A stretch of 36,658 nt of DNA, taken from NCBI GenBank assembly GCA_944383695.1, contig CALWQP010000030.1:1-36658 (forward strand), given 5' to 3'. A program made the position numbers and the translations under genes. A model generated the notes under the pieces. That model was given only the letters and a program-made list of their open reading frames with translations. It made no database searches and was not told the DNA's origin. How positions within the stretch are numbered: the first letter of the stretch is position 1; every line of letters starts with the position of its first letter. Below, in pieces: positions 66 through 24,994 of this stretch. The stretch is from an uncultured Mediterraneibacter sp. GTDB taxonomy: Bacteria; Bacillota; Clostridia; Lachnospirales; Lachnospiraceae.

Positions 66-340
66 AAAAAAAGTCGCCTCCTTTTCGTACTTTTAACTTC
101 AGTACGACAAGCGGTGACTGTACACTCTCCCGTGTGTGTCGTGAGAAACAAACACGGCACTCTCGTTCTTTCAACTCCTGCCATGGTCTCAATCCATGCC
201 TAAGAACGAGATACTGTTGTGATTCGTACAGTGACTTGTCGCCAGTTTCCTAACTTGACATTCGCTCCACGGAAAACCCGCCATTGCTTATTTTTTCGCT
301 CCGACGGCAACCTCACGCTTCATCGCTATCATGTCACAGC
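66..340 (-). ncRNA. Structured 5' leader of rpsJ (candidate ribosomal-protein autoregulatory leader)
   Basis: About 275 nt lie between the promoter and rpsJ with no convincing gene. The transcript can fold into a closed multibranch domain. Positions 235-240 pair with 106-111 (GACAAG/CTTGTC), and 226-232 with 117-123 (ACTGTAC/GTACAGT). Inside these are a 9-bp stem of 202-210 with 162-170 capped by a 194-198/182-186 hairpin, and a stem of 152-157 with 130-135. A further hairpin (102-106 with 86-90) ends just upstream of the Shine-Dalgarno sequence. Long leaders that bind a protein of their own operon are known for ribosomal operons; that this one does so is inference. Confidence 0.7.
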
Positions 341-581: not shown

Positions 582-2045
582 TTAGAGCTTTACTAATTGG
601 AAAAACGAACGGTTAAGATCCATAAAGCCCATACTCAGCGAAGCGCCATTTGATGCATTACCATCATATCTGAGCATATAATTGCTGTCTTTATTACTGC
701 GGATCAAATACCCCAGCGTTTTCCTGTCTTCAATTTTCCAATACTGATTATCCGCTCTTGTATTTGCCACTGTGACAACTCGTTTGCTGCCATTCGCATC
801 ATCCCATGTGAGGACCTTGCCATCAATCACATTGACGATCTGATAAGCATCTTTGCCTTTCTCATAAACCAGATCCCACTTTTGTTGCTGCTGGCCGTTC
901 CACTGCCAGAGACTTGTCTTCCCGTCACTTTTCATATTGTTGTCCACAACCATCTGCGGCGAGCTGACGAGATAGATTTTATACCTCCCCATCTCATCTG
1001 TATCAATCAGGTAATCGTTACATTTAATAATACCATCTATCAGACGTGCACCTGGGAAATCCGCTGCCACAATCCCAGTTTTTGAAACACCCTTATTATC
1101 TACAAGATTTGCAAATAGCGTGTTAATTCCTTCAAATGCAATGCTGGACAGCTCTCCCGCCTGTCCCACACGCGGAAAGTCCGGATAATAAGAGGCGAAT
1201 GCCGGTTCCGTAAGACCTGTCAGAAGCCTGGGTGCGCCAGTCTGTGGACTGGAATGTCCGCTTGCTGCGAAATACGGCATAACGCCTGCCGAACCTGCGC
1301 TCAGATGATTCAGCGTAACTCCGCTGTTCATAACATCCACCTTTTTCGCATGTTCCTTTACTTTTTCCCATTTCGAATACAAATCCCAATTTGTCCCGAG
1401 ATCGTAGTAATCCTGCGTATCTACATCTCGATAGTTCAAGCCATATACATTCAACGACAGCACATCCGATAAAAGCACCAGCCTGCCTCTCATACTCCCC
1501 AGAGTAGGATCCTTTTCCCCTGTAGGCTTCCAGAAAAGATTCTGATAACGTTTATAATATGTATCAAACACCTTCTTCATCTGAGGATCTGACGCACTGC
1601 TGTTTTCCTGTTTCAGCCGCATAATGATCGTTTCTCCCGGGTGCTGCTGAAGAAAGCTCTGTACCGTTTTAAGCACATCCTCAAGATCATACCCTAAATA
1701 TACAATTCCATGATGCAGCGGAAAACCAGTATCCGCATATTTCACGCGGATATCAATATAACGAATTCCGCTATCTAACTGCTGCTGAAGATTCATCGTC
1801 TGTGTCCGGGTATTATCCACAAAACTGAGGTTACTGCGATGTGACATCGAATCATGCGTTCCCGGAATAGACAATTCACTCAATCGGGCATTATCTCTAA
1901 GCCCGCTCATCCAATCTGCATTGTTCGAAGCCTGCTGTTCCTAGTGATAATACGCGGTGTCATAGTGTGCAGAAACTTTTTCTGCCGGCAGCATCGCCAA
2001 AACAAGAGCTGCTGCCATTACGGTAATGGTTCTCCATTTTTTCAT
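582..2045 (-). pseudogene. Secreted PI-PLC with ricin-type lectin domain, interrupted by one in-frame TAG
   Basis: The full frame starts at ATG 2045-2043 with AGGAGA upstream. It encodes a signal peptide of about 26 residues ending KVSA, then HYDTAYYH, an amber codon at 1943-1941 (codon 35), and EQQASNNADW running into the catalytic domain. That domain has the bacterial phosphatidylinositol-specific phospholipase C X-box: the SIPGTHDS His, a DIR triad and the second His in LHHG. The last 140 or so residues look like a beta-trefoil lectin (QWNGQ, NQYWKIED). The enzyme would cleave PI or GPI anchors outside the cell. If TAG stops translation, the secreted form is lost; an internal ATG at 1910 could yield an unexported enzyme. 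Apart from the TAG the gene is intact. Confidence 0.85.
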
Positions 2046-8214: not shown

Positions 8215-10017
8215 TCAGTCCAGAACGATAATACGGTCGTAATCCCCGATCAGCTTTTCCAGCTCCTCCCGGCTTACGCTCTCCACTGCCTCCACATTGG
8301 GAGCCCAGAGAAAATATCTGCATACATTTTGCACCTCCCCGCTGGACACCTGCCCATTCTCGTCTGATGCCACCACCAGATAGGTCCTTTCATCGGTTTC
8401 ACCGTTTTCATACCACCGGTCGCCGACAGCCCGCTCCACCCTGCCGGGCAGAGACGTCGCATAATCCGCCCGGATACTGCGCAGGCCGTTTATCTCCGAA
8501 TAAAGGAAATTCAGCCCAAGAAGGACTGTTCCCAGCACTGCATACTGATATCTCCGCTTCGCCCCCGGGGACGAATACGCCTTGTATGCGCCCCGCTCAT
8601 CAATGTCCACAGCAAAAGAACCTTCCATATCCACCGCCGCACCCATGATCAGCACTCCCGCAAACAGCGTCATGATACTGCAGGCGTAACGCTCAAAGCC
8701 AGCCAGACGCAGAGCCTCCTCCGCTGGCATGGTGTACAGATACATATACAGCATCCCCGCATAGTAGAGAATGACCGCCACAATGCCAACTGTCAGAATA
8801 TTTCCCAGCCGCCAGCGCTTTTTCATCTTAAACCGGGCATACAAAACCGCTCCCACGGCAAGGATAAGGCACACGAAGAACACCTGTGCCGCCCGCCCTG
8901 ACAGATCAAAGGAAGTCTCGAGAAAATCCCTCGTCACCTGACCGTATAATTCTTCTCCCACAGGAGCTCCATATTCGCCGGCAGCCTTTCCCATCTCAAA
9001 TTTGCCTTCAAAGCCTGCCATATCGATATTGAGATGGCGCTGCCACGCCAGTGAAGGGAGCGCCGCCCCACAGAGTATCAGCACCCCGCACCCAAATATT
9101 TTTGCCCGCCTCCTAAATGAGACGGCCTTATCCGCATCCTCTTTTCCGCTCCCTGGTTTCCGGTCTTCCTTCCCGGTATGGACGCTCATCCACAGAGCAT
9201 AGATTCCTGCCGCTCCTGCAAAAAACACCCCTGTGCTTTTCACAATTCCTATAAATCCAAGCAGTATCACCTGCAGGATGCAAAGCTTCTCTTTTTCTCT
9301 GCAATACCGAAAGGAAACCGCCGCGGACGCCATTGCCAGGAGAGGCAGGAGAAAATCCACCAGCAGGTTGTTGATCCGGATCGTCAGATTCAGATAAGAC
9401 AAAAGCGCGCACCCCATCCCCAGAAATGAGTAGAGAAGAAACCGTCTCCGTTCTTTCACAATGCCAAACACCGCATAGAAACAGGCGATTATCATACTGT
9501 TTTGAGCAAGGAGCATAACGCCCTGAGACCGCCCGGCAAACCGGCACACATAGTAGATGAACACACTGCTGCCCGGCGGATAATCCCGAAATGGTATCAT
9601 GACCGTGTCCGCCCCCGGAAAATGATCCGTGGACAGCAGGTATTTCACGATCAGCGCCCAGTGGGAGAAATTATCATAATGGAGTAATTTCAGATTAAGG
9701 GAAAGCAAAAGGAACACCGCCGCTCCCACCCCAAAGCAGCCCCCGCACAGGCTCCACTTCGGAGCGTTTATCTTTCCTCTTAAAAGAAAGACTACAAATA
9801 TGATAAACCCGATCAGCCCTCCCATGAGCGCCAGATCCGCTGCCAGAGCCAGAATGCCCAGAAGCCCGCCAAAGAAAAGCACAAGACTGATGCCTGCCAT
9901 GCAGACGATGGGCACAAACCAGCTCTTTACCTTCCCAAACCGGCAGACAATAAAAAAATATCCCCAAAACGACATTAAAAGCAGCGCTGCCTCTGTCAGT
10001 CTGTAAAGCCCTTCCAT
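8215..10017 (-). CDS. Large polytopic membrane protein of exopolysaccharide operon, GT-C-like (unassigned)
   Basis: This 600-residue protein has roughly eleven hydrophobic segments and a soluble C-terminal tail. The first large loop carries HYDNFSHW (about 113-120) and RDYPPG (about 144-149), an Asp/His-rich loop pattern reminiscent of GT-C glycosyltransferases and polymerase-like proteins that use lipid-linked sugars. I cannot assign a named family. It is the last gene of the operon, 60 bases after the PilZ synthase, with its own GAGG ribosome site before ATG 10017. A role in modifying, polymerising or moving the polysaccharide is inferred only from position and topology. Confidence 0.7.
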   Translation of the reverse strand: MEGLYRLTEAALLLMSFWGYFFIVCRFGKVKSWFVPIVCMAGISLVLFFGGLLGILALAADLALMGGLIGFIIFVVFLLRGKINAPKWSLCGGCFGVGAAVFLLLSLNLKLLHYDNFSHWALIVKYLLSTDHFPGADTVMIPFRDYPPGSSVFIYYVCRFAGRSQGVMLLAQNSMIIACFYAVFGIVKERRRFLLYSFLGMGCALLSYLNLTIRINNLLVDFLLPLLAMASAAVSFRYCREKEKLCILQVILLGFIGIVKSTGVFFAGAAGIYALWMSVHTGKEDRKPGSGKEDADKAVSFRRRAKIFGCGVLILCGAALPSLAWQRHLNIDMAGFEGKFEMGKAAGEYGAPVGEELYGQVTRDFLETSFDLSGRAAQVFFVCLILAVGAVLYARFKMKKRWRLGNILTVGIVAVILYYAGMLYMYLYTMPAEEALRLAGFERYACSIMTLFAGVLIMGAAVDMEGSFAVDIDERGAYKAYSSPGAKRRYQYAVLGTVLLGLNFLYSEINGLRSIRADYATSLPGRVERAVGDRWYENGETDERTYLVVASDENGQVSSGEVQNVCRYFLWAPNVEAVESVSREELEKLIGDYDRIIVLD

Positions 10018-10077
10018 TTTCTCACCTCACCTGTGTCCTCTTTCATTCTTCCTCTCACCTTTTCTCTCATATTCCTT

Positions 10078-12063
10078 TCATCTTTTCTCCCATCTCATAC
10101 GGATATTCCGGCACACCTCGTCATAAACCGTCATCCACGGATCGATCTCTCTTGGCAGGGAATGTTTCCGGTCATGAACGATCTGCATCCAGTTCCTCTT
10201 GCTCTCCTCATCCTCAGGACTGACTATTGCGGCCAGAAACACCCCCGGCCGCATCCCTGACATTCCAGATGGTGTTTCACTCCCTGCTTTATCTTCCGTC
10301 CAGGCCGCTTCTGCCCGGACGTTTTCTTCCTGCAGGGCGCCTTCCCCTCTGCTGTAAACACAGGTCGCGTTCAGGGCGGCTCTGTAATGCTCCGTGGTAA
10401 CCACGACCCGGAATGCATCCCCTTTTCCTATCCCCATCATGCCCGGAATCCGCAGTGCGATTCCCTCCTCAGACACATCCACAGTCCTTCCCTTCCGGTA
10501 TTCTCCATCTTTCCATACTTCCGCCTTCTCCTCTGCCCCGATCCGGTCCGAGATGCGCCGGGATTCCCTGCCGAGCATAAAGAATACGGCATACAAAAGA
10601 GCAACCAGATTGTAGCCCAGCCAGAAAAGAATGACGCTGCTGTACACCAGCGCCAGTCCGTATTTTCCCCGCAGAAAGCGGAGAATTGACGCAACCGTAA
10701 GGAGGATCAAGATGCCGTGGGGAATGAGATAGCGGAAAGAGGCAGTCTGCACTCTCTGCTTCTTCTTGTCCGTCACTTTAAATTTCTTGTAATGGATTCC
10801 AACGGATTCCAGAAAAACCGGGATGATCAGGTACGGCGCCAGAATCGTATCGATAATCTGGCTCCACCGCATATTCCGGATATTGGTACTCAAATACCCC
10901 ATGGACACCCGGTAGGATAGGTGGGAAGGCAGCCAGAACAGCAGCAGTTCCCAGAATCCGCACTCCACAAGTCGGAATCCAAACAGCGCAAAGAGGATGG
11001 GAGACAGAATGAAGATCATCCGGCACAGAAAGGTCCACCAGTACAGATACGAGTTCAGATAGGCCAGACGGGCTTTCAGCGTAAGGTCTTTTGTAAAGAC
11101 CGCATTTGTATTCTGGATGCTTTGTATCACGCCTCTTGCCCACCGTACTCTCTGACCGATCATACTCGCCACTGTGGTAGTAGAAAGCCCTGCGGCAAGC
11201 ACTTCCGATGAAGCATATGTTATATACCCTGCTTTCTGAAGGCGCAGACTGGTCTCAAAATCTTCTGTCACAGTATCATAGGGGAACCCGCCGATCTCTT
11301 CCAGCGCCGAGCGCAGGATGACGGTGTTGCTCCCGGTATATACAGCCGCGTTGGCGGTGTTTCTCATCACATTGATCTCCCGGGAAAAGAAATCCTGCTC
11401 ATTCGGGATATCTTTCTCCGAAAACAGGTTGAACTGGAACAGATCCTGATTATAGAAGCTCTGAGGAGTCTGCACCAACCCCATCTTTTTCTCCGGCATG
11501 AGAAAGTAAGGGACTGTTTTGATGAGAAATTCTCTCCTTGGTATCATGTCCGCGTCAAAGGTGGCGATCAGCGGCGAGGATGTGCGGGAAAGGGCATGGT
11601 TATAGTTTCCTGACTTGGCGTGACAGTTGTCCGAAAGTCCCAGATACCCCACTCCAAGATGATCAGCCAGCTCTCTGACCTCCTCCCGGTCTCCATCGTC
11701 ACACACATAGATATGGACCTTGTCCGGGTCCGGATACTCCATAAATGTACAGGCATTGATGGTCTTGTAGAGAAGCTTTGGGGATTCATTGTGAGTGGCG
11801 ATGAACACATCCACATGGGGGAACTGGTCATCAGAAACCTCCGGCAGGGGAATCTCATAATCACTGCTTTTCATCCTGTTGACCATCAATTCTATCATTC
11901 CCAGAGATGTCACTGTCTCTGCTGCCACCAGCGCGATACCGGCAACATTCTGCAATATCCCCTCCCGCCATGGCAGTGTAAAGAAAATCCTCCAGATCAG
12001 ATAGACAGACAGGGAAATGATCGTTACTATGAACCATCTGTTTCTTTTGTTCTCATCCGTCAT
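10078..12063 (-). CDS. Cellulose-synthase-like GT2 with C-terminal PilZ domain
   Basis: This 661-residue membrane glycosyltransferase has all processive-synthase motifs: CDDGD (121-125), the DxD at 170-172, TED (266-268) and QRVRW (304-308). Two N-terminal and several later membrane helices would form the glycan channel. The C-terminal region from about 498 is a PilZ domain with R499-xxx-R503 and DVSEEG (529-534), the c-di-GMP-binding residues, both intact. By analogy with BcsA, c-di-GMP binding would open the active site for polymerisation from a UDP-sugar. The sugar and linkage are unknown, and no BcsB-like partner is seen here. Its start overlaps the previous gene by 11 bases, with GGAGG upstream. 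Confidence 0.9.
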   Translation of the reverse strand: MTDENKRNRWFIVTIISLSVYLIWRIFFTLPWREGILQNVAGIALVAAETVTSLGMIELMVNRMKSSDYEIPLPEVSDDQFPHVDVFIATHNESPKLLYKTINACTFMEYPDPDKVHIYVCDDGDREEVRELADHLGVGYLGLSDNCHAKSGNYNHALSRTSSPLIATFDADMIPRREFLIKTVPYFLMPEKKMGLVQTPQSFYNQDLFQFNLFSEKDIPNEQDFFSREINVMRNTANAAVYTGSNTVILRSALEEIGGFPYDTVTEDFETSLRLQKAGYITYASSEVLAAGLSTTTVASMIGQRVRWARGVIQSIQNTNAVFTKDLTLKARLAYLNSYLYWWTFLCRMIFILSPILFALFGFRLVECGFWELLLFWLPSHLSYRVSMGYLSTNIRNMRWSQIIDTILAPYLIIPVFLESVGIHYKKFKVTDKKKQRVQTASFRYLIPHGILILLTVASILRFLRGKYGLALVYSSVILFWLGYNLVALLYAVFFMLGRESRRISDRIGAEEKAEVWKDGEYRKGRTVDVSEEGIALRIPGMMGIGKGDAFRVVVTTEHYRAALNATCVYSRGEGALQEENVRAEAAWTEDKAGSETPSGMSGMRPGVFLAAIVSPEDEESKRNWMQIVHDRKHSLPREIDPWMTVYDEVCRNIRMRWEKR

Positions 12064-13201
12064 GTTCTCCGCCTTCCTTTCTCCTGTTTAAAAACACCCA
12101 CCTTTTCTGTATCCGGTATGAGAAAAAGAATAAAATTCCATCACAGATCAGCTTTGCCGCTGCCGGCTCTGTGTGAAAAAAGGATGACACAACATACACA
12201 GACAAAGAGGAAGCGGCCATAATCCCAATGCACAGGCAAAGATATCGGAAAGCCTCCCTGTTCCACCCTCCTGTCCCGGGGTTTCCTTTTGTCCGGAAAA
12301 CCCAGTTTCGGTTCAGCCCGAAGTTGGCCGCCGCTGAGAGGAACCGTGCCCCGACAGTGGCAGCAGCGATCCGCCAGAACTGCCCCTCGTTCCCTGCATA
12401 GGGAAGCCCGGCGCTCCCATGGAGTATCTGTATCTTTTCAAAAGTATTATCAAAAATCCAGAACAGGGACAAATCCAGCAGGGCGCAGATCATAGAAGTC
12501 AGAACAAACCTGCCCGGTCCATGAAAAAGCGCTCCCATCACACGGACACTGTCCTTGACAGGCCGAAAATGGGTGCCTGCATTGTTATTTACATAGACGG
12601 TCTCTATCTTCTCTGTCACAATGGGAACTCCCTGCTGCGCACAGGCAAGCAGCACCCGCGTCTCATACTCGAACCTGTCCCCCGGAACTTGAAGCATCAT
12701 ATCCAGCAGGCTGCCATCAAACGCCCGGAATCCTGTCTGTGTATCGCTTAAGTATATTCCGCCGAAGATCCAGAAGATAACAGATGAAATGCGGTTTCCG
12801 AACCGGGACTTCCATGGGATGTTCTTCCCTGAAAAGTCCCTGCCTCCAAGAACCAGCATATCCGGGTACGCCTCCACTGTTTCCAAAAGACGTGCTCCGT
12901 CTTCCGGGAGATGTTGTCCGTCACAGTCCATGCACAGGATTCTGCTCTCTGTCCCAGCAGCTTCTCTCACATATCGAAAACCGGTTTTGAGCGCCTGTCC
13001 TTTCCCTTTGTTTTCCTCGTGACGGAGCACAAGACAATCATCCATCCCGGCGATCTGGTCGAATGTTTTCCGGTAAGTTTCGCCGGACCCATCGTCAATG
13101 ACCACGATCTTAGATGGAATCTTGTCACGAAGCTTTACAATCCGCCCATACAGGCCGGGCTCCGGCTCAAGAGCCGGGATGATGATATAGGTCCTCTCCA
13201 T
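12053..13201 (-). CDS. GT2 (DPM1-like) glycosyltransferase fused to GtrA-like membrane domain
   Basis: Residues 1 to about 225 form a GT-A glycosyltransferase of the dolichol-phosphate mannosyltransferase type: VVIDDGSG (33-40), NKGKGQALKTGF and the DCD metal site (92-94). Residues from about 229 to 375 carry four hydrophobic segments with the GtrA pattern (RFVLTSMICALLDL, NFGLNRNWVF, YRIQKRWVF). Such fusions make a polyprenyl-phosphate sugar and probably flip it across the membrane. ATG 13201 lies inside the end of the GGDEF gene (35-base overlap), with AAGGGA upstream, so translation is likely coupled. In this operon it may supply lipid-linked sugar for decorating the polymer. Confidence 0.87.
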   Translation of the reverse strand: MERTYIIIPALEPEPGLYGRIVKLRDKIPSKIVVIDDGSGETYRKTFDQIAGMDDCLVLRHEENKGKGQALKTGFRYVREAAGTESRILCMDCDGQHLPEDGARLLETVEAYPDMLVLGGRDFSGKNIPWKSRFGNRISSVIFWIFGGIYLSDTQTGFRAFDGSLLDMMLQVPGDRFEYETRVLLACAQQGVPIVTEKIETVYVNNNAGTHFRPVKDSVRVMGALFHGPGRFVLTSMICALLDLSLFWIFDNTFEKIQILHGSAGLPYAGNEGQFWRIAAATVGARFLSAAANFGLNRNWVFRTKGNPGTGGWNREAFRYLCLCIGIMAASSLSVYVVSSFFHTEPAAAKLICDGILFFFSYRIQKRWVFLNRRKEGGEHDG

Positions 13202-14912
13202 CTTGTGTTATCCCTTCTTTCCCATCCAGTATCCTGCTCCTTGGACAGTCTGCTCTGCACGAGATACACTCCCTTCTCATACAGGCGATCATTTTTTTAT
13301 TGATATAGAAACGATCTTTACCCAGATATTTGGAGATATACAACGCTGTATCCGCACACTGGTACAGCTTCTTATAATCTCTGATGCATCCGTCTATTGG
13401 AACCGCGCCGATGCTCACTGAGACCCGGTACTTTTCATACTCTTCTTTCATTGCCGCACGCACCCCGGCAAGAAGAGAATCGAACTTCTCTTCCAAAACT
13501 TTTTCCGTCATGGGATTGCCTACGAGAACGATAAATTCATCCCCGCCCAGCCGCCCGATAACGTCCTCCTCACGAAACGCTCCGGACAGGCACCGTGCGA
13601 ACCGCTGAAGCGCCCGGTCTCCCCTTGGATGCCCTTCAAAGTCATTGATCTGCTTAAAATTATCCAAATCCAGAAGGATCAGCGCGCCGCCAGGATGCTC
13701 ATTTTTCAGAAACATCTCTGCCCGGCGCTCAAAGCCGCTCCTGTTGTAAACTCCTGTCAGCCGGTCCCGCTCCGCCTCTGTCCGCGCCGCCCACAGCTGA
13801 TCCTCCATCCGGTCGATGCCGTGGGATTTCTCCACATACCCCTGCTCGAGCTGAAAAATCATATCCATTAGAAGCCGCAGCTCCGGAATCTCACTGTCAT
13901 CCTCCGACGGGTCCCGCTCTCCTCTGAGAATACCGTATATCCCTTCCCTGATCTGCTCAAAACGAAGGAACAGATATTTTTTCAGGTAATACCTTACCAT
14001 CAGGACACTCAGCGCACAGATCAATCCAATTACTGCCAGCCCGATACAAAATGTCAGAAAAACACTTCCCACCACCCGGTCCAGTCCTGAAAAAGCCACC
14101 AGATACATGTCGTCCAGATCTCTTACCACAGCGCTCTGATACGCACCATTGATATGAAGAAATACCGGTTCTCCTTTCGGTATCCGGGATAAATATTCCA
14201 GCATTTCCTGCCCTTCCCGGACATCCCGGATCTGAATATCCTGACTGTTGTTTTCTGTGATCCCAAAAACACTCCCCTTTATTTTTCCCACTGCAAATAT
14301 ACTGGTCTCATATTCAGTTGTCGCCTGCCTTAAGATGGTCCCCACTACCTCCTTGCCGCTCACCAGACCCGCCTGGGAGATGTCCGCATCAATGCGCACA
14401 GCAGCAAACCGTTCTGATTCAGAACCAGCTAATACATAGAAGTATTCAGGACGGTTCCGGAAATCCGGGATGTCCAAATGGACAGAGGCCCTCTCCCCCT
14501 TGGGCAGCTCTTTCAACTCTTCCATCACCACTTCTGCTTCCCTGCTGCCTTCCAGCGTTTCATCTGTACTCAAAAAGACCTCTCCAGAAGAATCAAGCAG
14601 GGAGATATCTCCCACCTCCATAATCTCTTTTAAGAACTCCAGCCCATTTCTGCCGATCATCTGTGTGTCATGGGACGCAATGTATTCCACTGCCCGCGCC
14701 CGGCTTATATAGTCTTCCTCCAGATGCTCCAGCTTCTCCTCATACTCCTGAGTCGCCCGGTCGAGGTTGGACTCCACGCTTATCAATAGCTGCTCCAGAT
14801 ATCTGCCGTTCTCGTCTTTCCCTCTCTTATACAGACTGACCGCAAAGATAAGCACAAACAGGACAGTTGAAAACAGGAAAATTGCCGCCAGCCCTTTGTA
14901 CAGCCGCTTCAT
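13167..14912 (-). CDS. Membrane-bound GGDEF diguanylate cyclase with C-terminal cysteine cluster
   Basis: The 581-residue protein has a helix at 8-28, an extracytoplasmic sensor region of about 250 residues with a long coiled-coil start (38-75), a second helix at about 281-306, a linker, and a GGDEF domain at about 380-538. The active site GGDEF (456-460) and the inhibitory site R447-xx-D450 are intact, so it should make c-di-GMP with product feedback. After the domain comes an unusual tail with Cys 544, 549, 552 and 556. The start is ATG 14912, overlapping the TGA of the EAL gene as ATGA, with GGAGGGGG upstream. The end overlaps the next gene by 35 bases. Confidence 0.9.
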   Translation of the reverse strand: MKRLYKGLAAIFLFSTVLFVLIFAVSLYKRGKDENGRYLEQLLISVESNLDRATQEYEEKLEHLEEDYISRARAVEYIASHDTQMIGRNGLEFLKEIMEVGDISLLDSSGEVFLSTDETLEGSREAEVVMEELKELPKGERASVHLDIPDFRNRPEYFYVLAGSESERFAAVRIDADISQAGLVSGKEVVGTILRQATTEYETSIFAVGKIKGSVFGITENNSQDIQIRDVREGQEMLEYLSRIPKGEPVFLHINGAYQSAVVRDLDDMYLVAFSGLDRVVGSVFLTFCIGLAVIGLICALSVLMVRYYLKKYLFLRFEQIREGIYGILRGERDPSEDDSEIPELRLLMDMIFQLEQGYVEKSHGIDRMEDQLWAARTEAERDRLTGVYNRSGFERRAEMFLKNEHPGGALILLDLDNFKQINDFEGHPRGDRALQRFARCLSGAFREEDVIGRLGGDEFIVLVGNPMTEKVLEEKFDSLLAGVRAAMKEEYEKYRVSVSIGAVPIDGCIRDYKKLYQCADTALYISKYLGKDRFYINKKMIACMRRECISCRADCPRSRILDGKEGITQDGEDLYHHPGS

Positions 14913-15682
14913 ATCAGCCCCCTCCATCTGATATACTGCTCTTTTGTCAACGGTCTGGAATAATAATATCCCTGCCCCAAATAACATTGATTTTCCACGA
15001 GAAAACGGATCTGTTCTTCTGTTTCCACTCCCTCAGCCACCACTTCCATCCCCAGCCGTCTGGCCATGTCAATGGTAGATGCAAGGATGATGTCCGCCCT
15101 TGTCTCCCCGATCCTGCTGACAAAATGCCGGTCCAGCTTCAGGATGTCAAAGCAAAACTCCTGGAGCAGTTTCAACGTGGAGTTTCCGGTTCCGTAGTCA
15201 TCCATGGCAATCTGGTATCCCTCTTTTTGAAGCTGGCCTGCAAACTCCATCAGACCAGCCTCATCCTCCTCTTTCTCTGCCGTCTCTGTAATTTCAAAGG
15301 AAAGCTCTCCGGGCTGTATACCGTAATACGCCGTAACTTTCCTGATGCAATCCGGGCTTCCCTCTCTCCCCGCATGCAGTCTGGACAGATTTACCGACAC
15401 TGGGCCGAAGAGAAATCCCCTCTGCTTCGCCTCAGAGGCGTCTTTGCAGACAAGTCTTACTACTTCTTCATCCAGAAATGGCATAAGCCCCGCCTTCTCC
15501 AGCGCTGGAACGAATCGATCCGGCGGGATCAGAGCGCCGTCCTCTCTCTGCCACCGGACAAGCGCCTCGCCTCCTCTGGGGCTGCCTGTCCTCATGTCGA
15601 TCTGTGGCTGGTACCAGACATGAAAGTCTCTGTTTTTCAATGCTTCTTTGAAACTTCGCTCCACCTTGGATAAGCCTTTCAT
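14909..15682 (-). CDS. Stand-alone EAL-domain c-di-GMP phosphodiesterase
   Basis: This protein of about 257 residues is almost entirely an EAL domain. The expected metal and catalytic residues are present: E39 of EAL, N98, E130, D161-D162, K182, E217 and Q237, so it should hydrolyse c-di-GMP to pGpG. There is no membrane segment or extra sensor. I chose ATG 15682 (GGAGG ten bases upstream, 15697-15693); GTG 15688, two codons earlier, is possible. It is the first gene of the polysaccharide operon and is joined to the cyclase gene by an ATGA overlap, so the two opposing enzymes are made together. Confidence 0.9.
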   Translation of the reverse strand: MKGLSKVERSFKEALKNRDFHVWYQPQIDMRTGSPRGGEALVRWQREDGALIPPDRFVPALEKAGLMPFLDEEVVRLVCKDASEAKQRGFLFGPVSVNLSRLHAGREGSPDCIRKVTAYYGIQPGELSFEITETAEKEEDEAGLMEFAGQLQKEGYQIAMDDYGTGNSTLKLLQEFCFDILKLDRHFVSRIGETRADIILASTIDMARRLGMEVVAEGVETEEQIRFLVENQCYLGQGYYYSRPLTKEQYIRWRGLI

Positions 15683-15790
15683 CCACACAATGCCTCCGCG
15701 TCCACATAAATATCTGCATCTCCAGTATCATTAGGATGCCTGAAAATGAGAAACTTTATGCTTTGCGTGTTTTTTCTCCGGCATTTGCAC

Positions 15791-15840
15791 AAAAAAACAG
15801 ATACACGAAGGATTTCTTTCATTCTTCATGTATCTGTTTA
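15791..15840. terminator. Bidirectional intrinsic terminator
   Basis: A 16-base stem (15795-15810 with 15824-15839, one G-U or A-C position) is flanked by runs of A and T. On the minus strand it ends the flavodoxin/nucleotidyltransferase transcript and insulates the polysaccharide operon, whose promoter must lie in 15690-15790. No strong promoter is obvious there. Confidence 0.8.
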
Positions 15841-15868: not shown

Positions 15869-16021
15869 TCAATGGTATCCATCAGGAACGACAACGTAAA
15901 AATCATAATCACTGTCCTCATTATAGGTATCTTTTGCAGAGGAACCGAACAGATAGATCCGTTTTGGCATGATAGTCATGCAGTTACTGTCTTTAATTGC
16001 ATTGATCTCATTATTAATCAT
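15869..16021 (-). CDS. Truncated nucleotidyltransferase (MNT-type) remnant
   Basis: The 50-residue frame carries the nucleotidyltransferase signature LFGSSAKDTYNEDSDYDFYV, that is GSx10DxD, which binds metal and nucleotide. Members of the MntA/minimal nucleotidyltransferase family are usually 100 residues or more and often pair with a HEPN toxin; here the frame ends in TGA right after VVVPDGYH and no partner is present. ATG 16021 has GAGGTGAAC upstream. It lies 51 bases after the flavodoxin gene and just before a terminator. It is most likely a decayed remnant, though a short expressed protein is possible. Confidence 0.6.
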   Translation of the reverse strand: MINNEINAIKDSNCMTIMPKRIYLFGSSAKDTYNEDSDYDFYVVVPDGYH

Positions 16022-16072
16022 CTTGTTCACCTCGCACCCTGCCCTATCTCCAAAATATTCTGTTCTCAGCAA

Positions 16073-19277: not shown

Positions 19278-20150
19278 CTAAATATCTTTATGCTGCCTGA
19301 TATGGACAATAAACTGCTGCATGGTCCGGGAAACAGCCTGCGCCTTTTTCCACACGATCACAGCGCCAGTTTCCAGAGGAGGAGAAAGGGGAATAAACCT
19401 GAGATTGTCATACCGGTTCTCCAGCCGGAAACAAAAAGCTGCCCCTACATTTTTTTCTACCATAACTGCTGCATTATTGATCAGATTGTATGTCCCCATA
19501 ACGCGGACCTGGTCGTAATATTCTCCCAGCCATCCTTCTATCTCGTTTCTGAGAATGGGTCTCTGTGCCAGAAAAACCGGCACGTTGATCAAATCCTGCG
19601 GCGTGACAGAACTCTTTTCCGATAATTCAGAATCTTTCGATACCAGGATCCCCCATTTTTCTTTTCTCTTCAGACGGATAAAACTGTATTTTGTAATATC
19701 CACAGGCTCCATCAGAAGCCCGATATCCAAAAGCCCTTTGTCAATCCGCTCCTTAATTTCGTCTGCGTTTGCTGTGTACAGATCATACTGCACCATGGGA
19801 TGTTCCGCCTGAAACTTACGGATGATGTCTGCAAGCACTTGTACATTGTTTGTCTCTCCGCTGCCGATCGCAATGCTTCCTGACAGCTGTTCCTCTCTCC
19901 GCCTGAACTCTCTTTCCGTCTTGTCCGCAAGCTGCACCAGTTCCTGCGCCCTCCGCTTTAAAAGCATCCCATCTTCTGTCAGATGGATATTGTGGCTGGT
20001 GCGCTCAAACAGCTTTGTCTCCAGTTCTTTCTCGAGCTGTATAAGCTGCCTTGACAAAGTCGGCTGGGTAATATGCAGAAGCTCTGCTGCCTTTGTGATA
20101 TTCTCTTCTCTTGCAACCATTAAAAAGTATCTGAGCACTCTTATTTCCAT
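19278..20150 (-). CDS. LysR family transcriptional regulator
   Basis: The 290-residue protein has the LysR N-terminal helix-turn-helix (VAREENITKAAELLHITQPTLSRQLIQLEKEL) and a periplasmic-binding-protein-like effector domain from about residue 90. ATG 20150 is chosen because GAGG lies nine bases upstream; ATG 20156 is too close to it. It lies 106 bases after the aldo/keto reductase at 20257-21294 in the same direction, so it may be co-transcribed and regulate that gene. It ends in TAG followed three codons later by TAA. Confidence 0.87.
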   Translation of the reverse strand: MEIRVLRYFLMVAREENITKAAELLHITQPTLSRQLIQLEKELETKLFERTSHNIHLTEDGMLLKRRAQELVQLADKTEREFRRREEQLSGSIAIGSGETNNVQVLADIIRKFQAEHPMVQYDLYTANADEIKERIDKGLLDIGLLMEPVDITKYSFIRLKRKEKWGILVSKDSELSEKSSVTPQDLINVPVFLAQRPILRNEIEGWLGEYYDQVRVMGTYNLINNAAVMVEKNVGAAFCFRLENRYDNLRFIPLSPPLETGAVIVWKKAQAVSRTMQQFIVHIRQHKDI

Positions 20151-20256
20151 TGTCATACACCTCGTATTGAGAATATCATTCCGCGGGAAATTTTTCAATT
20201 ATTTCTTCCGCCTCCGAAGCACGCCCCTTCTCTGGTGTAAAGTCACCTTTTCCAGT

Positions 20257-21294
20257 CTATATAGTCTGGTTGCCCGTGGACCAGACATGTTTTTCTTTTG
20301 CCTGTGCCGCCGTATTCTGCGCCATGACCCCTACCAGTCTGTGGGGGACATACGGTTCCTCCAGATAATGGATTTCCTCTTTCGTAAGGCAGATATCCGC
20401 CGCTTTTACCATACCGTCAACGTGCGGCAGCTTTGTCGCTCCCACGACAGGAGACGTCACCTTGGTCAGAAGCCATGCCAGAGAGATTTCTGTCATGGAC
20501 ACGCCCCGCTTAGCCGCAATCTCCTGTACGCGTGATATGATCACTCCGTCTTCCTCAGCCGTCCCATCATACTTCAGCCTAGCATAGCCGTCTTCCTTAA
20601 GCCTTCTGGAAGTTTCGCCCGGGGCTTTGGACAGCCTTCCTCCCGCCAGCGCGCTGTACGGCGTCATCGCAATGTTATCCTCCCGGCAGAGCTTCGCCAT
20701 CTCCCGCTCTTCTTCCCGGAAGATCAGATTGTAATGCCCCTGTATGGATACAAACTTTGCAAATCCCTCTCTTTCCGCCAGAGCATTTGCCTTTGCAAGC
20801 TGATATGCATAGCAGTTGGAAATCCCGATATACCTTGCCTTCCCTTTCTTTACTACGTTATCCAGCCCTTCCATGATATCGTAAAGCGGCGTCGCATAAT
20901 CCCACATATGGTAAATATACAGATCCACATAGTCCATGCCCAGATTCTCAAGGCTTTTATTGAGCATCCGCTCAATATGCTGCTGTGCGGGGACTCCGTT
21001 TTCGATTTCTTCCGAAGTGCGGGGAAGAAACTTTGTGGCCACAACAACCTCATCCCGCTTTGCATAATCACGGAGAGCCCTTCCCAGATATTGTTCGCTC
21101 GTCCCGCTCTGGTACGCAATGGCAGTATCATAAAAATTAATTCCTGACTTCAGCGCATAGCGGATGATCCGGCGGGTGTGCTCTTCGTCAAGGGTCCACG
21201 TATGCTGTCCGTTTGCCGCGTCCCCAAATCCCATGCATCCCATACAGATGCGGGACACACTTAAATCAGAGTTGCCTAATTTTGTATACTTCAT
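20257..21294 (-). CDS. Aldo/keto reductase
   Basis: This 345-residue NAD(P)H-dependent oxidoreductase has a TIM barrel. The catalytic tetrad is visible: Asp and Tyr in NFYDTAIAYQSG, Lys in VATKFLPR and His in LYIYHMWD. It reduces aldehydes or ketones in the cytoplasm; the substrate is unknown. ATG 21294 (AGGAA upstream) begins the typical KYTKLGNSDLSVSRICMGCMG motif. An in-frame ATG at 21441 would add 49 residues of Cys/Arg-rich, non-family sequence. LysR follows it in the same direction. Confidence 0.9.
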   Translation of the reverse strand: MKYTKLGNSDLSVSRICMGCMGFGDAANGQHTWTLDEEHTRRIIRYALKSGINFYDTAIAYQSGTSEQYLGRALRDYAKRDEVVVATKFLPRTSEEIENGVPAQQHIERMLNKSLENLGMDYVDLYIYHMWDYATPLYDIMEGLDNVVKKGKARYIGISNCYAYQLAKANALAEREGFAKFVSIQGHYNLIFREEEREMAKLCREDNIAMTPYSALAGGRLSKAPGETSRRLKEDGYARLKYDGTAEEDGVIISRVQEIAAKRGVSMTEISLAWLLTKVTSPVVGATKLPHVDGMVKAADICLTKEEIHYLEEPYVPHRLVGVMAQNTAAQAKEKHVWSTGNQTI

Positions 21295-21530
21295 AATATC
21301 CGTTCCTTTCCACTCATACTTTGGGCATATCTTGTGTTCCGGCTTTCCTGCCCGACGGCACCGGAAATAGAATATCTCTTTCTGTACAGGATCCTTTCTC
21401 GAAACACCTTTCTCAAAACGGCTTCTTGACGAATCCGGCATTTCCCTTTACTATATAATGGTAAATATGATAATAAATGTGGTAATAAAATATCCCAATT
21501 AGCCTTGATTCAAATGAACGGACCCCAACC

Positions 21531-22133
21531 ATGACTTCTGACAAAAATGAAAGTACAAAGAACATATACATTGTCACAAGCTACACAAACACATTCATCG
21601 GGAAATTGATCCTGCTGAGGGCAAGGATGAGATTCTGGAACCGATACGAGGGAGATTCCTACTCCCATGTATCGCTCTCACTGGAGCCTGATCTGCGCAA
21701 CATGATGTCCTTTGCGCGCAAGCAGATGAACAACCCGCTCATATCCGGACTGATCCGGGAGAACATCCACGCCGGGATGTTCACACTGTACCCGGAGCGC
21801 AGCAGGATCGCGGTCATGAAGATCGAGGTGACGCACCAGCAGTACAGCCGTATATCAAAACATATGAACTCAGACTGGCTCAACGCCCATAATCTGAAAT
21901 ATAATTATCCCGGCTTGATCAGTATGCTCTTTCTTGGCAGGGGTGTCCACGTGGAGAACTCCTTTTTCTGCTCCCAGTGGGTCGCTGAAGTTTTGAGAAA
22001 AAGCGACCTGGATCTGTTTAATGGGCAGCCTTCCTGCAACATACGTCCCTTTGATTTTTACCGTACGTTGAGCCACCGTCTTATCTTTGAGGGAAAGACC
22101 GCCGACTATGCTCATGGGCTGATTGATGAATAA
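21531..22133 (+). CDS. YiiX/NlpC-P60-like papain-fold hydrolase
   Basis: This 200-residue protein has the circularly permuted papain-like order: His in SYSHVSLSL (H46) first and Cys in FFCSQWVAEVL (C147) later, as in YiiX/YaeF-type amidases. These cleave amide or lipid-linked bonds, but the substrate of this clade is unknown. There is no signal peptide, so it is probably cytoplasmic. The ribosome site before ATG 21531 is weak, while AT-rich DNA with TATAAT (21454-21459) lies about 75 bases upstream. It is divergent from the reductase at 20257 and converges on a flavodoxin gene; no operon partner is seen. Confidence 0.7.
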   Translation: MTSDKNESTKNIYIVTSYTNTFIGKLILLRARMRFWNRYEGDSYSHVSLSLEPDLRNMMSFARKQMNNPLISGLIRENIHAGMFTLYPERSRIAVMKIEVTHQQYSRISKHMNSDWLNAHNLKYNYPGLISMLFLGRGVHVENSFFCSQWVAEVLRKSDLDLFNGQPSCNIRPFDFYRTLSHRLIFEGKTADYAHGLIDE

Positions 22134-22265
22134 GGCAGGACTCTATGCTTTGTCAAATGCTTTCCCAATATCATTTCTTACATATTTGTTCTGAAATGCA
22201 CCCATCCTCCTGTATGGAAACTGAAATATCCTTCTTTCCTTAAAAAGCTCATGTCTTTTTTACTT

Positions 22266-22742
22266 TTACAGCACAGTGTCCACCCATTTTTTCAAAGCAT
22301 CCACAGACGGATTTCCATTCAGTATCCGCCCCTCCCTGATATGTGCTCCCGGACAGCTTGGCGCAAGGGCTTGCACCGTCTTTCCGAAACCGCTTCCACC
22401 CGATGTCGCAAAAAGAATGATCTCTTTGCCGGTGAAATCATAGCTTTCAAGAAATGTATTAATGATGGTGGGCGCCACATACCACCAGATGGGGAAACCA
22501 AGCAGTATTCTGTCATATGCAGCGATGTCCGCGTCTTTATCCGCAAGCTCCGGACGGAATGCAAGGTCGTTCATCTCCACGGAACTGCGGGACTTCTTAT
22601 CCATCCAGTCCAAATCCGCCTGCGTATAAGGCACGGCAGGTTTTATCTCATACAGATCCGCTCCTGCCGCCTGCGCCAGATTCTCTGCTGTTCTCTTTGT
22701 GACTCCGCTGGCTGAAAAATATGCTGTCAGTGTGCTGCTCAT
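22266..22742 (-). CDS. Flavodoxin family protein, cytoplasmic
   Basis: A 158-residue flavodoxin_4-type protein: AYFSASGVTKRTAENLA (FMN phosphate loop with Ser instead of the usual Thr), then LLGFPIWWYVAPT and FATSGGSGFGKT. It resembles the C-terminal domain of the lipoprotein at 16073-16753 but has no signal peptide. It likely carries two electrons or acts as an NAD(P)H-linked quinone or flavin reductase. AAGGAG precedes ATG 22742, and a near-consensus promoter lies upstream, so it is probably a single-gene unit. Confidence 0.87.
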   Translation of the reverse strand: MSSTLTAYFSASGVTKRTAENLAQAAGADLYEIKPAVPYTQADLDWMDKKSRSSVEMNDLAFRPELADKDADIAAYDRILLGFPIWWYVAPTIINTFLESYDFTGKEIILFATSGGSGFGKTVQALAPSCPGAHIREGRILNGNPSVDALKKWVDTVL

Positions 22743-22775
22743 AATATCGCTCTCCTTTTTCTTTTTCTGAAGAAT

Positions 22776-22804
22776 ATTATAGGACCCCGGACCGACACTG
22801 TCTA
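22776..22804 (-). promoter_or_regulatory. Sigma-A promoter of flavodoxin gene 22266-22742
   Basis: On the minus strand TAGACA (22804-22799), a 17-base spacer and TATAAT (22781-22776) lie 34 bases before the start codon. Confidence 0.75.
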
Positions 22805-22831
22805 ATGCTTATATTTCATCCTGCGTTATGC

Positions 22832-23371
22832 CTATTCCGTATCGCCTTTCAGACGATCCTTCTGATACTTCCTGTATTCCCTGAATTCTCTGCGCAAAAC
22901 CTTTTTCAGTTCTCTCCGCGGCATATTGCTGTATTTCTTTTTCGCGTCATCCTTTGCCTGCCCGGTCTCCAGGTCATCCAGGATCCACTCCACGGCTTCC
23001 TCTTCTTTTACCTTATATTTGTCAAGTATGTAGCGGATATAAATGTTCCCGATGGAATATCCTCTCTTCTCCATATCCGTCTCAGCTGCCCGGATCGCTT
23101 TTAGTTCACGTCTGCCCCCTGTGACAAGTATCATGTGTTTTTCCTTTTTGTCGGCAGTCATTCTCCATATGATATGGGACACAGCATACGGCACCTTCCC
23201 ATTCTGGCTCTCAAATATAAGTCCAACCTTGGCGCCTGTGGCAAAAATGAGTCTCTTTTCCGCATAATCAGACGCTTTCCTGCATTCCACATCTTCATGT
23301 CCTTCAAATCTGCCGATCCACCGGCAGCAGCTTGCCTTTGTATCATCGTAAAAAATAATAATCTTCCCCAT
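22832..23371 (-). CDS. Flavodoxin-like domain protein with basic C-terminal tail (unassigned)
   Basis: The 179-residue product starts MGKIIIFYDDTKASCCRWIGRF and continues with alternating strands and helices, including VGLIFESQNGKVPYAVSHI and HMILVTGGRR, as in the flavodoxin half of EFR1-type proteins. A clear FMN loop (SxTGNT) is missing. The last 50 residues are helical and very basic (KKKYSNMPRRELKKVLRR). I cannot assign a function. An AT-rich inverted repeat upstream shares a 12-mer with the operator of the MarR gene just behind it, which suggests MarR control. It ends in TAG, then TAA two codons later. Confidence 0.55.
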   Translation of the reverse strand: MGKIIIFYDDTKASCCRWIGRFEGHEDVECRKASDYAEKRLIFATGAKVGLIFESQNGKVPYAVSHIIWRMTADKKEKHMILVTGGRRELKAIRAAETDMEKRGYSIGNIYIRYILDKYKVKEEEAVEWILDDLETGQAKDDAKKKYSNMPRRELKKVLRREFREYRKYQKDRLKGDTE

Positions 23372-23394
23372 GATCCGTCCCGCCTTTCTGTTTT

Positions 23395-23424
23395 ATAGTT
23401 ATAAATTTTTTAATTTTAAACTAT
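23395..23424. promoter_or_regulatory. Candidate MarR operator before 22832-23371 gene
   Basis: ATAGTT (23395-23400) and AACTAT (23419-23424) are inverted copies around an AT core. The core contains TTTAATTTTAAA (23409-23420), identical to a 12-mer in the MarR gene's own operator at 23949-23960. A promoter TTTAAA-17-TATAAA can be read across it on the minus strand. Confidence 0.5.
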
Positions 23425-23438
23425 TTTCAAAAGGGTAA

Positions 23439-23465
23439 GGCGCTCTAATCTGTATGCGGAGCGCC
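23439..23465 (-). terminator. Weak hairpin terminator after marR-type gene
   Basis: GGCGCTC and GAGCGCC form a 7-bp GC-rich stem 30 bases past the MarR stop. On the minus strand it is followed by a modest T stretch, so termination is plausible but may be leaky. Confidence 0.5.
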
Positions 23466-23495
23466 CTGTGCCTGAGAAGGAACACCTGTCTCTGT

Positions 23496-23927
23496 TTACA
23501 AAACCTTATTTATATTGCGATTCATTTTTTTGGCGGCTGATTCCAGTGCCTGCTGCTCTTCTTTCGTCACCCCGTCAAGGACGATCTCTTTGATCTTTCT
23601 GGAAATCTTTTCGATTTTGCAGATCACAGGCGCCGCATCCTCTGTAAGATAATTATGCGTACACCGCCTGTCATCCTGATCCTGGACCATCCTGACATAA
23701 CCGTTCTTCTGGAGCCTGCTTAATGACTGCGATATATGCCCCCGGGTAAACATATTCAGCTGCATGATATCTTTGGATGTATTTTGTTCTCCTGCCCGGT
23801 TCAGATAAAGCAGGACCTGTATATCAATCTTCTGCAGGCCGTATTGTGTTTCCAGCGGCTGCATCTCTTTCTCCAGCAGTCTTCTAAACTGCATGCCATA
23901 CAGTAATGTATCGAGTGAATAATTCAT
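23496..23927 (-). CDS. MarR family transcriptional regulator
   Basis: This is a 143-residue winged-helix protein. NTSKDIMQLNMFTRGHISQSLSRLQKNGYV is the recognition helix region and QDQDDRRCTHNYLTEDA is the beta-wing with the family's DxR. MarR proteins repress by binding palindromes and release on ligand or oxidant binding. A perfect 14-bp inverted repeat covers its -10 box, so autorepression is very likely; a related sequence precedes the adjacent flavodoxin-like gene. GAGAGGG precedes ATG 23927. Confidence 0.88.
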   Translation of the reverse strand: MNYSLDTLLYGMQFRRLLEKEMQPLETQYGLQKIDIQVLLYLNRAGEQNTSKDIMQLNMFTRGHISQSLSRLQKNGYVRMVQDQDDRRCTHNYLTEDAAPVICKIEKISRKIKEIVLDGVTKEEQQALESAAKKMNRNINKVL

Positions 23928-23941
23928 TTTTTCCCTCTCGG

Positions 23942-24003
23942 AGTATAATTTAATTTTAAATTATTTATAATTAAATTATACTGCTAATACGCCAACCTGT
24001 CAA
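23942..24003 (-). promoter_or_regulatory. Consensus promoter and perfect palindromic operator of the marR-type gene
   Basis: On the minus strand TTGACA (24003-23998), a 17-base spacer and TATAAT (23980-23975) match the sigma-A consensus fully. A 14-bp inverted repeat, AGTATAATTTAATT at 23942-23955 and its mirror at 23969-23982, contains the -10 box. Binding there would block polymerase. The function as MarR operator is inferred from position and symmetry. Confidence 0.82.
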
Positions 24004-24014
24004 GAGGATTAAAA

Positions 24015-24047
24015 ATCGCCTATACTCTATGCAAAAGTATAGACGAT
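24015..24047 (-). terminator. Intrinsic terminator at end of reductase/EFR1 operon
   Basis: On the minus strand ATCGTCTATACT and AGTATAGGCGAT form a 12-bp stem (one G-U) followed by TTTTTAAT. It lies 30 bases after the aldo/keto reductase stop and ends the five-gene operon. Confidence 0.8.
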
Positions 24048-24077
24048 CTTTCGTTTTAATGGCGTCTGCTGTCTGTT

Positions 24078-24929: not shown

Positions 24930-24994
24930 GTTCTTTTCCTCCTGTTTTTTTGATTTAACATCTTTTATTCTTAAGTGGCTAATAACTGTCTGCC

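What the first reader, a model, noticed from the sequence alone, without database searches (positions are those of the whole stretch)
8215..15682. Self-contained c-di-GMP-controlled polysaccharide operon
One compact operon encodes a phosphodiesterase (EAL), a membrane sensor cyclase (GGDEF with inhibitory site), a GT2-GtrA lipid-sugar enzyme, a BcsA-like synthase with intact PilZ residues and a large membrane protein. Maker, breaker and receiver of the signal are translated together with the machine they control. No BcsB, BcsZ or Pel/Pss-type partners are present, so it differs from the standard cellulose locus, and the product is unknown.
Basis: partly seen in the sequence, partly recalled or inferred. 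Interest (0 to 1): 0.82.

Follow-up and report, generated by a model that had tools for sequence, protein, structure and literature searches.

The report
Signal-controlled exopolysaccharide operon in gut bacterium
A gut bacterium carries one compact operon that probably makes a surface sugar polymer, adds side sugars to it outside the cell and switches its production with its own signalling enzymes; the core genes are already known from streptococci and lactobacilli, so it is a variant rather than a new kind of system.

Summary
Five minus-strand genes (EAL phosphodiesterase, sensor GGDEF cyclase, GT2-GtrA, BcsA-like PilZ synthase, 600-aa membrane protein) form a tight operon, probably in a Candidatus Mediterraneibacter genome. 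Order is conserved: 24 of 25 genus genomes with synthase and membrane protein have them adjacent; 15 of 35 fetched loci have all five functions in order. Synthases of this locus type group together (100/100), apart from Ccs-type loci and E. coli BcsA. The core is published: PMC10333796 describes the same four kinds of gene as a Streptococcus module. The trio without signal genes sits on a Levilactobacillus brevis KB290 plasmid; KB290 makes a glucose plus GlcNAc EPS, though I could not tie that composition to the trio alone. Most likely mechanism: the synthase extrudes a c-di-GMP-activated glucan, GT2-GtrA makes and flips a lipid-linked sugar, and the membrane protein, a probable GT-C transferase, adds it as side groups. 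The GT-C step is inferred from remote similarity (96-98%; one reversed control reached 63%) and gene neighbourhoods. In the window genome this operon holds the only GGDEF and EAL domains with intact motifs that I found. Verdict: new variant of a known kind.

The parts
14909..15682 (-). EAL c-di-GMP phosphodiesterase (257 aa), first gene of the operon
   Evidence: Pfam EAL 214.7 bits; signature motifs present
13167..14912 (-). membrane sensor diguanylate cyclase (581 aa): N-terminal sensor region with no named Pfam domain over cut-off, then GGDEF with RxxD I-site
   Evidence: Pfam GGDEF 115.3 bits; motif REED-VIGRL-GGDEF; ATGA overlap with the EAL stop
12053..13201 (-). GT2-GtrA protein: polyprenyl-phosphate sugar synthase type GT2 joined to a GtrA flippase domain
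   Evidence: Pfam GT2 E=1e-14 and GtrA_DPMS_TM E=4.8e-13, both over cut-off; PDB relative dolichol monophosphate mannose synthase 5mlz E=9.5e-5
12092..12511 (-). GtrA domain (residues 231-370); no hit to it over 40 bits in 7 relatives' loci
10078..12063 (-). BcsA-like processive GT2 synthase with C-terminal PilZ domain (661 aa)
   Evidence: TIGR03030 390.6 bits, under its 699.1 cut-off; cellulose synthases of the PDB E=2.7e-79; catalytic motifs intact
10339..10560 (-). PilZ match in the synthase (RxxxR from residue 503, DxSxxG from 529)
8215..10017 (-). 600-aa polytopic membrane protein, probable GT-C-type transferase that uses a lipid-linked sugar
   Evidence: D115, H119, W120, Y146, Y155, D221, K260, E434, R443, Y444 in 35 of 35 homologues; hhalign 96-98% to a PMT_2 alignment; homologues beside GT2-GtrA genes without a synthase
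15787..15840 (-). strong intrinsic-terminator-like hairpin followed by a U run, about 100 nt upstream of the operon (ends approximate)
   Evidence: fold -25.4 kcal/mol, z -7.55; read

Best explanation
A signal-controlled synthase plus side-chain EPS machine. (1) The BcsA-like synthase polymerises a UDP-sugar, most likely UDP-glucose, and extrudes the chain; its PilZ domain binds c-di-GMP and opens the gate. (2) The GT2 domain loads a second sugar onto a polyprenyl phosphate and the GtrA domain (or another GtrA of the cell) flips it outward. (3) The 600-aa membrane protein, a GT-C-type transferase, moves that sugar onto the emerging chain outside the cell as side units. (4) The membrane cyclase, encoded in overlapping frames with its neighbours, makes the c-di-GMP in response to an external cue and the EAL enzyme removes it, so the operon carries nearly its own signal circuit. 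The likely product is a cell-bound glucan with short side groups, plausibly GlcNAc as in L. brevis KB290, giving aggregation and bile tolerance. Shown: genes, motifs, order, grouping, neighbourhoods. Inferred: all activities, the GT-C fold, the product.
For: Domains and intact motifs. RxxxR and (D/N)xSxxG are kept in 38 of 38 synthases of the group. Synthase and membrane protein are adjacent in 24 of 25 genus genomes that have both and in 10 of 10 order-level genomes outside the genus with strong membrane-protein matches; 10 of 10 with only weak matches lack the synthase. In 6 of those 10 weak loci the homologue lies next to a GT2-GtrA gene, the layout of a three-component glycosylation pair. 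PMT_2 (GT-C) match in M. catenae's protein, E=4.1e-5, 24.3 bits against a 26.1 cut-off; profile comparison 98.3% and 96.3%. In Enterococcus gilvus a BcsA-like synthase is followed by a GtrII-family transferase, PF14264 E=6.3e-32. KB290's plasmid carries the trio, inside the same group; its EPS is glucose plus GlcNAc with a role in bile tolerance, and the strain without the plasmid does not aggregate. Census: the window genome has 2 GGDEF and 2 EAL matches; the second pair is one protein that looks degenerate.
Against: The GT-C assignment rests on remote similarity. Of 26 homologues only 2 reach PMT_2 at E<=1, none over the cut-off, while DUF1418 is reached by 4 (best 0.0036). The 9 weak homologues gave no GT-C family, nor did the two Lactobacillus plasmid proteins. 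Two narrow PMT clusters score 0.4-1.1%; the reversed membrane-protein alignment scored 62.7% against the Wzy set, so chance scores can be high; direct HMM scores are weak, biased and one-way. PDB: only one chance match, E=0.65, none for the profile. KB290 also has a 17-gene chromosomal polysaccharide cluster, and the paper on its plasmid operon was seen only as a title, so its glucose/GlcNAc composition is not tied to the trio by what I saw. GtrA gives no hit in 7 relatives' loci and GT2 none in 5 Lacrimispora-type loci. The outside rows nearest the synthase group include L190, which has a GH5 cellulase neighbour. The PilZ domain of RiGT2, another BcsA-like Gram-positive synthase, was reported not to interact with c-di-GMP. 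No product data for this organism were seen.
Confidence: 0.55

Rival explanations
1. Plain cellulose-like or mixed-linkage glucan synthase operon: the chain is unbranched, the 600-aa protein is an export or assembly partner replacing BcsB, and GT2-GtrA supplies a lipid-linked primer or works on another wall polymer.
For: The membrane protein is the most constant partner of the synthase, even where no GT2 hit lies in the locus (five Lacrimispora-type loci). GT2 shares one frame with the synthase in 2 loci with GtrA gone, which suits a cytoplasmic priming role. Best PDB matches are cellulose synthases. An outside neighbour in the tree, L190, has a GH5 cellulase beside it.
Against: Weak homologues of the membrane protein occur with GT2-GtrA but no synthase (6 of 10 loci), odd for a synthase export subunit. 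KB290 EPS contains GlcNAc besides glucose (not tied to the trio by what I saw). RiGT2 is reported as unlikely to depend on a BcsB subunit of the known type, so a partner need not be one.
Confidence: 0.28
2. The GT2-GtrA and membrane protein decorate lipoteichoic or wall teichoic acid or another wall polymer, and share the operon with the synthase only for co-regulation.
For: Three-component systems of this kind are described for LTA, WTA and secondary wall polysaccharides in Gram-positives (PMC8035078, passages).
Against: Synthase and membrane protein stay together across genera and on plasmids, which points to a shared substrate.
Confidence: 0.1
3. The synthase is not really under c-di-GMP control; its PilZ domain is structural as reported for RiGT2.
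For: RiGT2: no interaction of its PilZ with c-di-GMP but loss of activity without it (PMC10374906 passage). Trio without a local cyclase in Lactobacillus plasmids and Paenibacillus.
Against: Both binding motifs are kept in 38 of 38 synthases of the group, cyclase and phosphodiesterase genes overlap the machine's genes in the window, and a Streptococcus module is described as c-di-GMP signalling.
Confidence: 0.1

Closest known systems
Streptococcus c-di-GMP module (Liu et al. 2020, not held; described in a passage of PMC10333796)
   Same: Diguanylate cyclase, Dpm1-GtrA hybrid, cellulose synthase-like protein, polytopic inner membrane protein, in this order in the Streptococcus loci L044, L046, L047; synthases in one group; the S. 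equinus locus L046 sits between genes that read by eye as trmB and rimP, the published site
   Different: The window adds an EAL phosphodiesterase as first gene; its cyclase has a different N-terminal sensor region (streptococcal ones are reported as PAS-GGDEF); Mediterraneibacter synthases lack an extra C-terminal stretch of the Streptococcus ones; 26-47% identity by protein
Levilactobacillus brevis KB290 pKB290-1 glycosyltransferase operon
   Same: GT2/GtrA, BcsA-like PilZ synthase, homologous membrane protein in the same order; same group in the tree
   Different: No GGDEF or EAL gene beside it; plasmid-borne; 38% identity in the synthase
GtrA/GtrB/GT-C three-component glycosylation systems (PMC8035078, passages)
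   Same: Polyprenyl-phosphate GT2, GtrA flippase, probable multi-spanning transferase
   Different: Here linked to a processive synthase and c-di-GMP enzymes; GT2 and GtrA are one protein
Clostridial cellulose synthase ccsZABHI (PMC7710045, passages)
   Same: GT2-PilZ synthase of Clostridia without Gram-negative BcsB
   Different: ccs has a GH5 hydrolase, CcsB and an MBOAT/DHHW acetylation pair, none seen here; separate place in the tree
Listeria pssA-E with dgcAB/pdeC (PMC4125290, passages)
   Same: c-di-GMP-induced Gram-positive EPS, cell aggregation
   Different: Receptor is the degenerate GGDEF protein PssE; cyclases and a phosphodiesterase lie in another operon

Membership tests
Streptococcus-type c-di-GMP polysaccharide module | Diguanylate cyclase gene next to Dpm1-GtrA, synthase-like and polytopic membrane protein genes | tested here: met
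Streptococcus-type c-di-GMP polysaccharide module | Synthase and membrane protein homologous to the streptococcal ones | tested here: met
   45-46% and 29-30% identity; synthases in one group 100/100
Streptococcus-type c-di-GMP polysaccharide module | PAS-GGDEF cyclase | tested here: not met
   Pfam finds only GGDEF over cut-off in the window cyclase; N-terminal regions do not align. So it is filed as a variant of the module, not a plain member
Streptococcus-type c-di-GMP polysaccharide module | 16 predicted transmembrane helices in the membrane protein | tested here: inconclusive
   only a crude hydropathy plot
Bcs cellulose synthase locus | BcsA at or over the TIGR03030 cut-off | tested here: not met
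   390.6 of 699.1 bits
Bcs cellulose synthase locus | BcsB partner gene | tested here: not met
   none among the window proteins scanned; not searched genome-wide
Bcs cellulose synthase locus | PilZ domain with RxxxR and (D/N)xSxxG | tested here: met
   Pfam PilZ 22.4 bits, cut-off 22.5
Clostridial cellulose synthase (ccsZABHI) | GH5 hydrolase, CcsB and acetylation genes beside the synthase | tested here: not met
   no GH5 or MBOAT among the window proteins scanned; GH5 and MBOAT confirmed beside L177, GH5 beside L190; other Ccs-type labels by eye
RiGT2/Cgs mixed-linkage glucan synthases | Groups with RiGT2 | not testable with these tools
GtrA/GtrB/GT-C three-component glycosylation | Polyprenyl-phosphate-type GT2 | tested here: met
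   Pfam GT2; below-cut-off NCBIfam hits to AglJ and PpgS; dolichol monophosphate mannose synthase in the PDB; lipid substrate itself not tested
GtrA/GtrB/GT-C three-component glycosylation | GtrA flippase | tested here: met
   PF04138 49.8 bits, cut-off 26.1
GtrA/GtrB/GT-C three-component glycosylation | GT-C fold transferase | tested here: inconclusive
   sub-threshold PMT_2 in 2 of 26, hhalign 96-98% with controls up to 63%
Listeria Pss | Degenerate GGDEF receptor PssE | tested here: not met
   the GGDEF here is intact; the receptor motif lies in the synthase PilZ

The most novel reading that the evidence does not exclude
This is a class of synthase-dependent exopolysaccharide in which a GtrA/GtrB/GT-C lipid-sugar relay decorates the chain outside the cell while a processive BcsA-type synthase extrudes it, and in this Mediterraneibacter the operon carries a nearly private c-di-GMP circuit (the only GGDEF and EAL domains with intact motifs found in the genome). 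The streptococcal module and the KB290 plasmid operon would be the same machine with and without the signal part.
Probability: 0.48. Interest if true: 0.7.

Novelty: new variant of a known kind. Interest (0 to 1): 0.5.

Why it matters
It links three published but separate threads: the streptococcal c-di-GMP module whose membrane protein had no stated function in the passage I read, the KB290 plasmid operon and its EPS, and Gram-positive three-component glycosylation. It gives a testable answer to how a synthase-made polymer could get a second sugar, and a compact natural circuit in which maker, breaker and receiver of one second messenger serve one machine. That would be useful for studying c-di-GMP in gut Firmicutes and for glycan engineering.

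Tried and rejected
c-di-GMP riboswitch in the leader: none over gathering score in the window or in six relative loci. Mixed-linkage glucan synthase: cannot be settled without the RiGT2 sequence. Wzy-type polymerase for the membrane protein: profile score 0.3-6%. Export subunit role for it: kept as a rival. Private signalling from gene counts: 11 of 25 genus genomes with the module have exactly 2 GGDEF matches, and 17 of 33 without it have exactly 1 (counts tallied); others have up to 9 and 13, so this does not hold genus-wide. HD-GYP, other PilZ proteins and BcsB were not searched genome-wide.

Many G genomes are the same assemblies as loci L017-L048 (equal contig lengths), so the two sets must not be added. 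Most relatives are metagenome assemblies; L045 looks like a Streptococcus contig in a Lachnospiraceae MAG. GtrA loss and the GT2-synthase frame could in part be assembly errors.

Limits of the profile comparison: the PMT_2 set held 36 proteins, the Wzy set 30. One search gave eight clusters: two with PMT matches, one the membrane-protein family, one the synthase, and four others, not annotated, one of which may be the Wzy set. Rows not printed: one search showed hits over 40 bits only, only frames near a synthase, only clusters of at least four. L077's weak match (43.7 bits) did not reappear. In the tree L088 is labelled with the trio although its membrane protein lies on another contig, and the contig of L045 is cut inside its membrane-protein gene.

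Full report
OBSERVATION. They are packed with overlaps of 4 (ATGA), 35 and 11 nt and one 60-nt gap. Pfam and NCBIfam identify EAL, GGDEF, GT2+GtrA and a BcsA-like GT2+PilZ protein; the last protein, 600 aa and polytopic, matches no family over its cut-off. The signature motifs of EAL, GGDEF with RxxD I-site, GT2 synthase and PilZ are intact (which residues count is recalled). A strong terminator-like hairpin stands about 100 nt upstream (fold z -7.55). No c-di-GMP riboswitch was found in the window. The synthase has one match in the genome.

ORGANISM AND CONSERVATION. The nearest named relative is Candidatus Mediterraneibacter pullicola (97% synthase identity). Of 35 loci fetched with the synthase, 15 carry EAL, cyclase, GT2 (with or without GtrA), synthase and membrane protein in order (L017-L029, L042, L048). 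Of 58 genus genomes (the window's own included), 25 have strong matches to both synthase and membrane protein; in 24 they are adjacent, in one (G035) they lie on different contigs. One genome (G028) has only a broken remnant of the membrane protein, one (G040) only a weak homologue, one (G048) only a distant synthase. Of the 25, 18 have both EAL and cyclase in the locus, four have a cyclase but no EAL hit, one (G041) has neither, and in two the contig is cut (with the window's own locus). At order level 23 of 393 genomes match the membrane-protein profile at E<=1e-10. Of the 20 outside the genus, the 10 strong ones all have the synthase next door and the 10 weak ones have none at E<=1e-20. The synthase profile is patchy: 11 of 398 genomes of the phylum sample and 17 of 392 of the class sample at E<=1e-50, the window's own included and not all of this locus type.

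WHAT IS ADD-ON AND WHAT IS CORE. Cyclase and phosphodiesterase vary: both in 18 of 25 genus genomes and in three loci of other genera (L079, L082, L185); cyclase without EAL hit in Streptococcus and in L030, L031, L043, L078, L092, L093; both after the membrane protein in Chakrabartyella; no hit beside it in the Lacrimispora, Paenibacillus and Lactobacillus plasmid loci. Seven loci show no GtrA hit over 40 bits (L023, L024, L028, L030, L082, L092, L094). In two of these (L023, L030) the GT2 domain and the synthase share one open frame. A review reports that one GtrA flippase serves three systems in one species (PMC8035078 passage), so loss of the local copy need not break the pathway. The constant pair is synthase plus membrane protein, usually with a GT2; five Lacrimispora-type loci (L032, L033, L035, L041, L049) have no GT2 hit.

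PHYLOGENY. In a tree of 58 synthases, the 35 labelled with the trio context (GT2 with or without GtrA), two from Lacrimispora with synthase plus membrane protein only, and a second copy from a Lacrimispora-like genome (L083) form one group of 38 at 100/100. Loci read as Ccs-type and E. coli BcsA lie outside it. The outside rows nearest to it are L190 (GH5 neighbour), L189/L191 (no such neighbours seen) and the long-branched E. gilvus row L196, whose place is unsure. The root is the midpoint, for drawing only. RxxxR and (D/N)xSxxG are present in all 38 rows of the group and broken in L184 and L196, both outside it.

THE MEMBRANE PROTEIN. Ten residues, among them D115, H119 and W120 in the motif HYDNFxHW, are invariant in 35 of 35 homologues, including 9 from genomes without a synthase match. 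In 6 of 10 weak-homologue loci the gene lies beside a GT2-GtrA gene (L069, L070, L071, L073, L075, L076; L068 has a partial GT2; L072, L074 and L077 show no such pair), as a donor-and-transferase pair would. Pfam PMT_2 is reached by 2 of 26 members, best E=4.1e-5 and under its cut-off; DUF1418 is reached weakly by 4. Nine weak homologues gave no GT-C family. Profile comparison with 36 PMT_2 proteins gave 98.3% and 96.3%; four other polytopic clusters gave 0.1-1.5%, Wzy 0.3-6%. A reversed alignment reached 62.7% once, two narrow PMT clusters scored about 1% or less, and HMM scores were weak and one-way. I take a GT-C fold as likely, not shown. In Enterococcus gilvus a related synthase is followed by a GtrII-family transferase, a pairing of the same sort.

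PRODUCT. L. brevis KB290 plasmid pKB290-1 and an L. plantarum plasmid carry the trio. For KB290 I saw passages of PMC3609814 (a strain cured of three plasmids loses aggregation and gut-juice tolerance while one cured of two that keeps pKB290-1 does not; two plasmid glycosyltransferases named; also a 17-gene chromosomal polysaccharide cluster) and of PMC4285317 (cell-bound EPS of glucose and GlcNAc, bile-salt tolerance). Of Fukao et al. 2019, whose title says that a plasmid glycosyltransferase operon is responsible for the EPS, aggregation and bile resistance, I saw only the title in reference lists. A glucose backbone with GlcNAc side units is my inference for that operon, and a further step for the window.

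SIGNALLING. The window genome has two GGDEF and two EAL matches at E<=1e-6. One of each is in this operon; the others are one 546-aa protein whose motifs read TGDEY, EAVVR, LDHFG and AAGVE, which looks degenerate in both domains by eye. HD-GYP and other PilZ proteins were not searched. So within what was tested the operon holds the only c-di-GMP enzymes of the genome with intact motifs.

PRIOR ART. A passage of the review PMC10333796 describes the four-gene module in Streptococcus, citing Liu et al. 2020, which is not held. The S. equinus locus L046 sits at the published trmB-rimP site by reading of the flanking proteins by eye. In the capped listings of my ten paper searches I saw no paper that joins a GtrA/GT-C relay to a BcsA-type synthase; that is a statement about these listings only. 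The nearest were L. johnsonii glucan EPS1, which needs a GtrA-GtrB pair (PMC7117936, abstract and passages), and an Actinoplanes GtrA cluster (PMC13390465, passages).

VERDICT.

Noticed in passing
window 582-1910 (-): A 442-aa protein with a PI-PLC X domain and ricin-type lectin-like repeats; looks like a secreted phospholipase.
   Followed up: no
window 236-331 (-): S10-Clostridia ribosomal protein leader, 88.8 bits, so a ribosomal protein operon probably starts off the window's edge.
   Followed up: no
window 15869-16030 (-): Short frame that reads by eye like the start of a nucleotidyltransferase, cut off by a stop, just before the hairpin upstream of the operon.
   Followed up: no
L023 9146-11908, L030 9233-11905: Polyprenyl-phosphate-type GT2 and BcsA-like synthase in one open frame with no GtrA hit; possible natural fusion or assembly effect.
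   Followed up: partly
L197 716-2356: A composite GGDEF-EAL protein that looks degenerate in both domains by eye; matches of similar frame length and score recur in many genus genomes.
   Followed up: partly
L196 7998-11620: Enterococcus gilvus megaplasmid: BcsA-like synthase with broken PilZ motifs followed by a GtrII-family transferase.
   Followed up: partly
window 19278-30242: Four aldo/keto reductases, an alpha/beta hydrolase-like protein, a flavodoxin-ferredoxin-like protein and two LysR regulators close together.
   Followed up: no
L045: Contig filed as Lachnospiraceae but nearly identical to the Streptococcus equinus module in L046; probable binning error or recent transfer.
   Followed up: no
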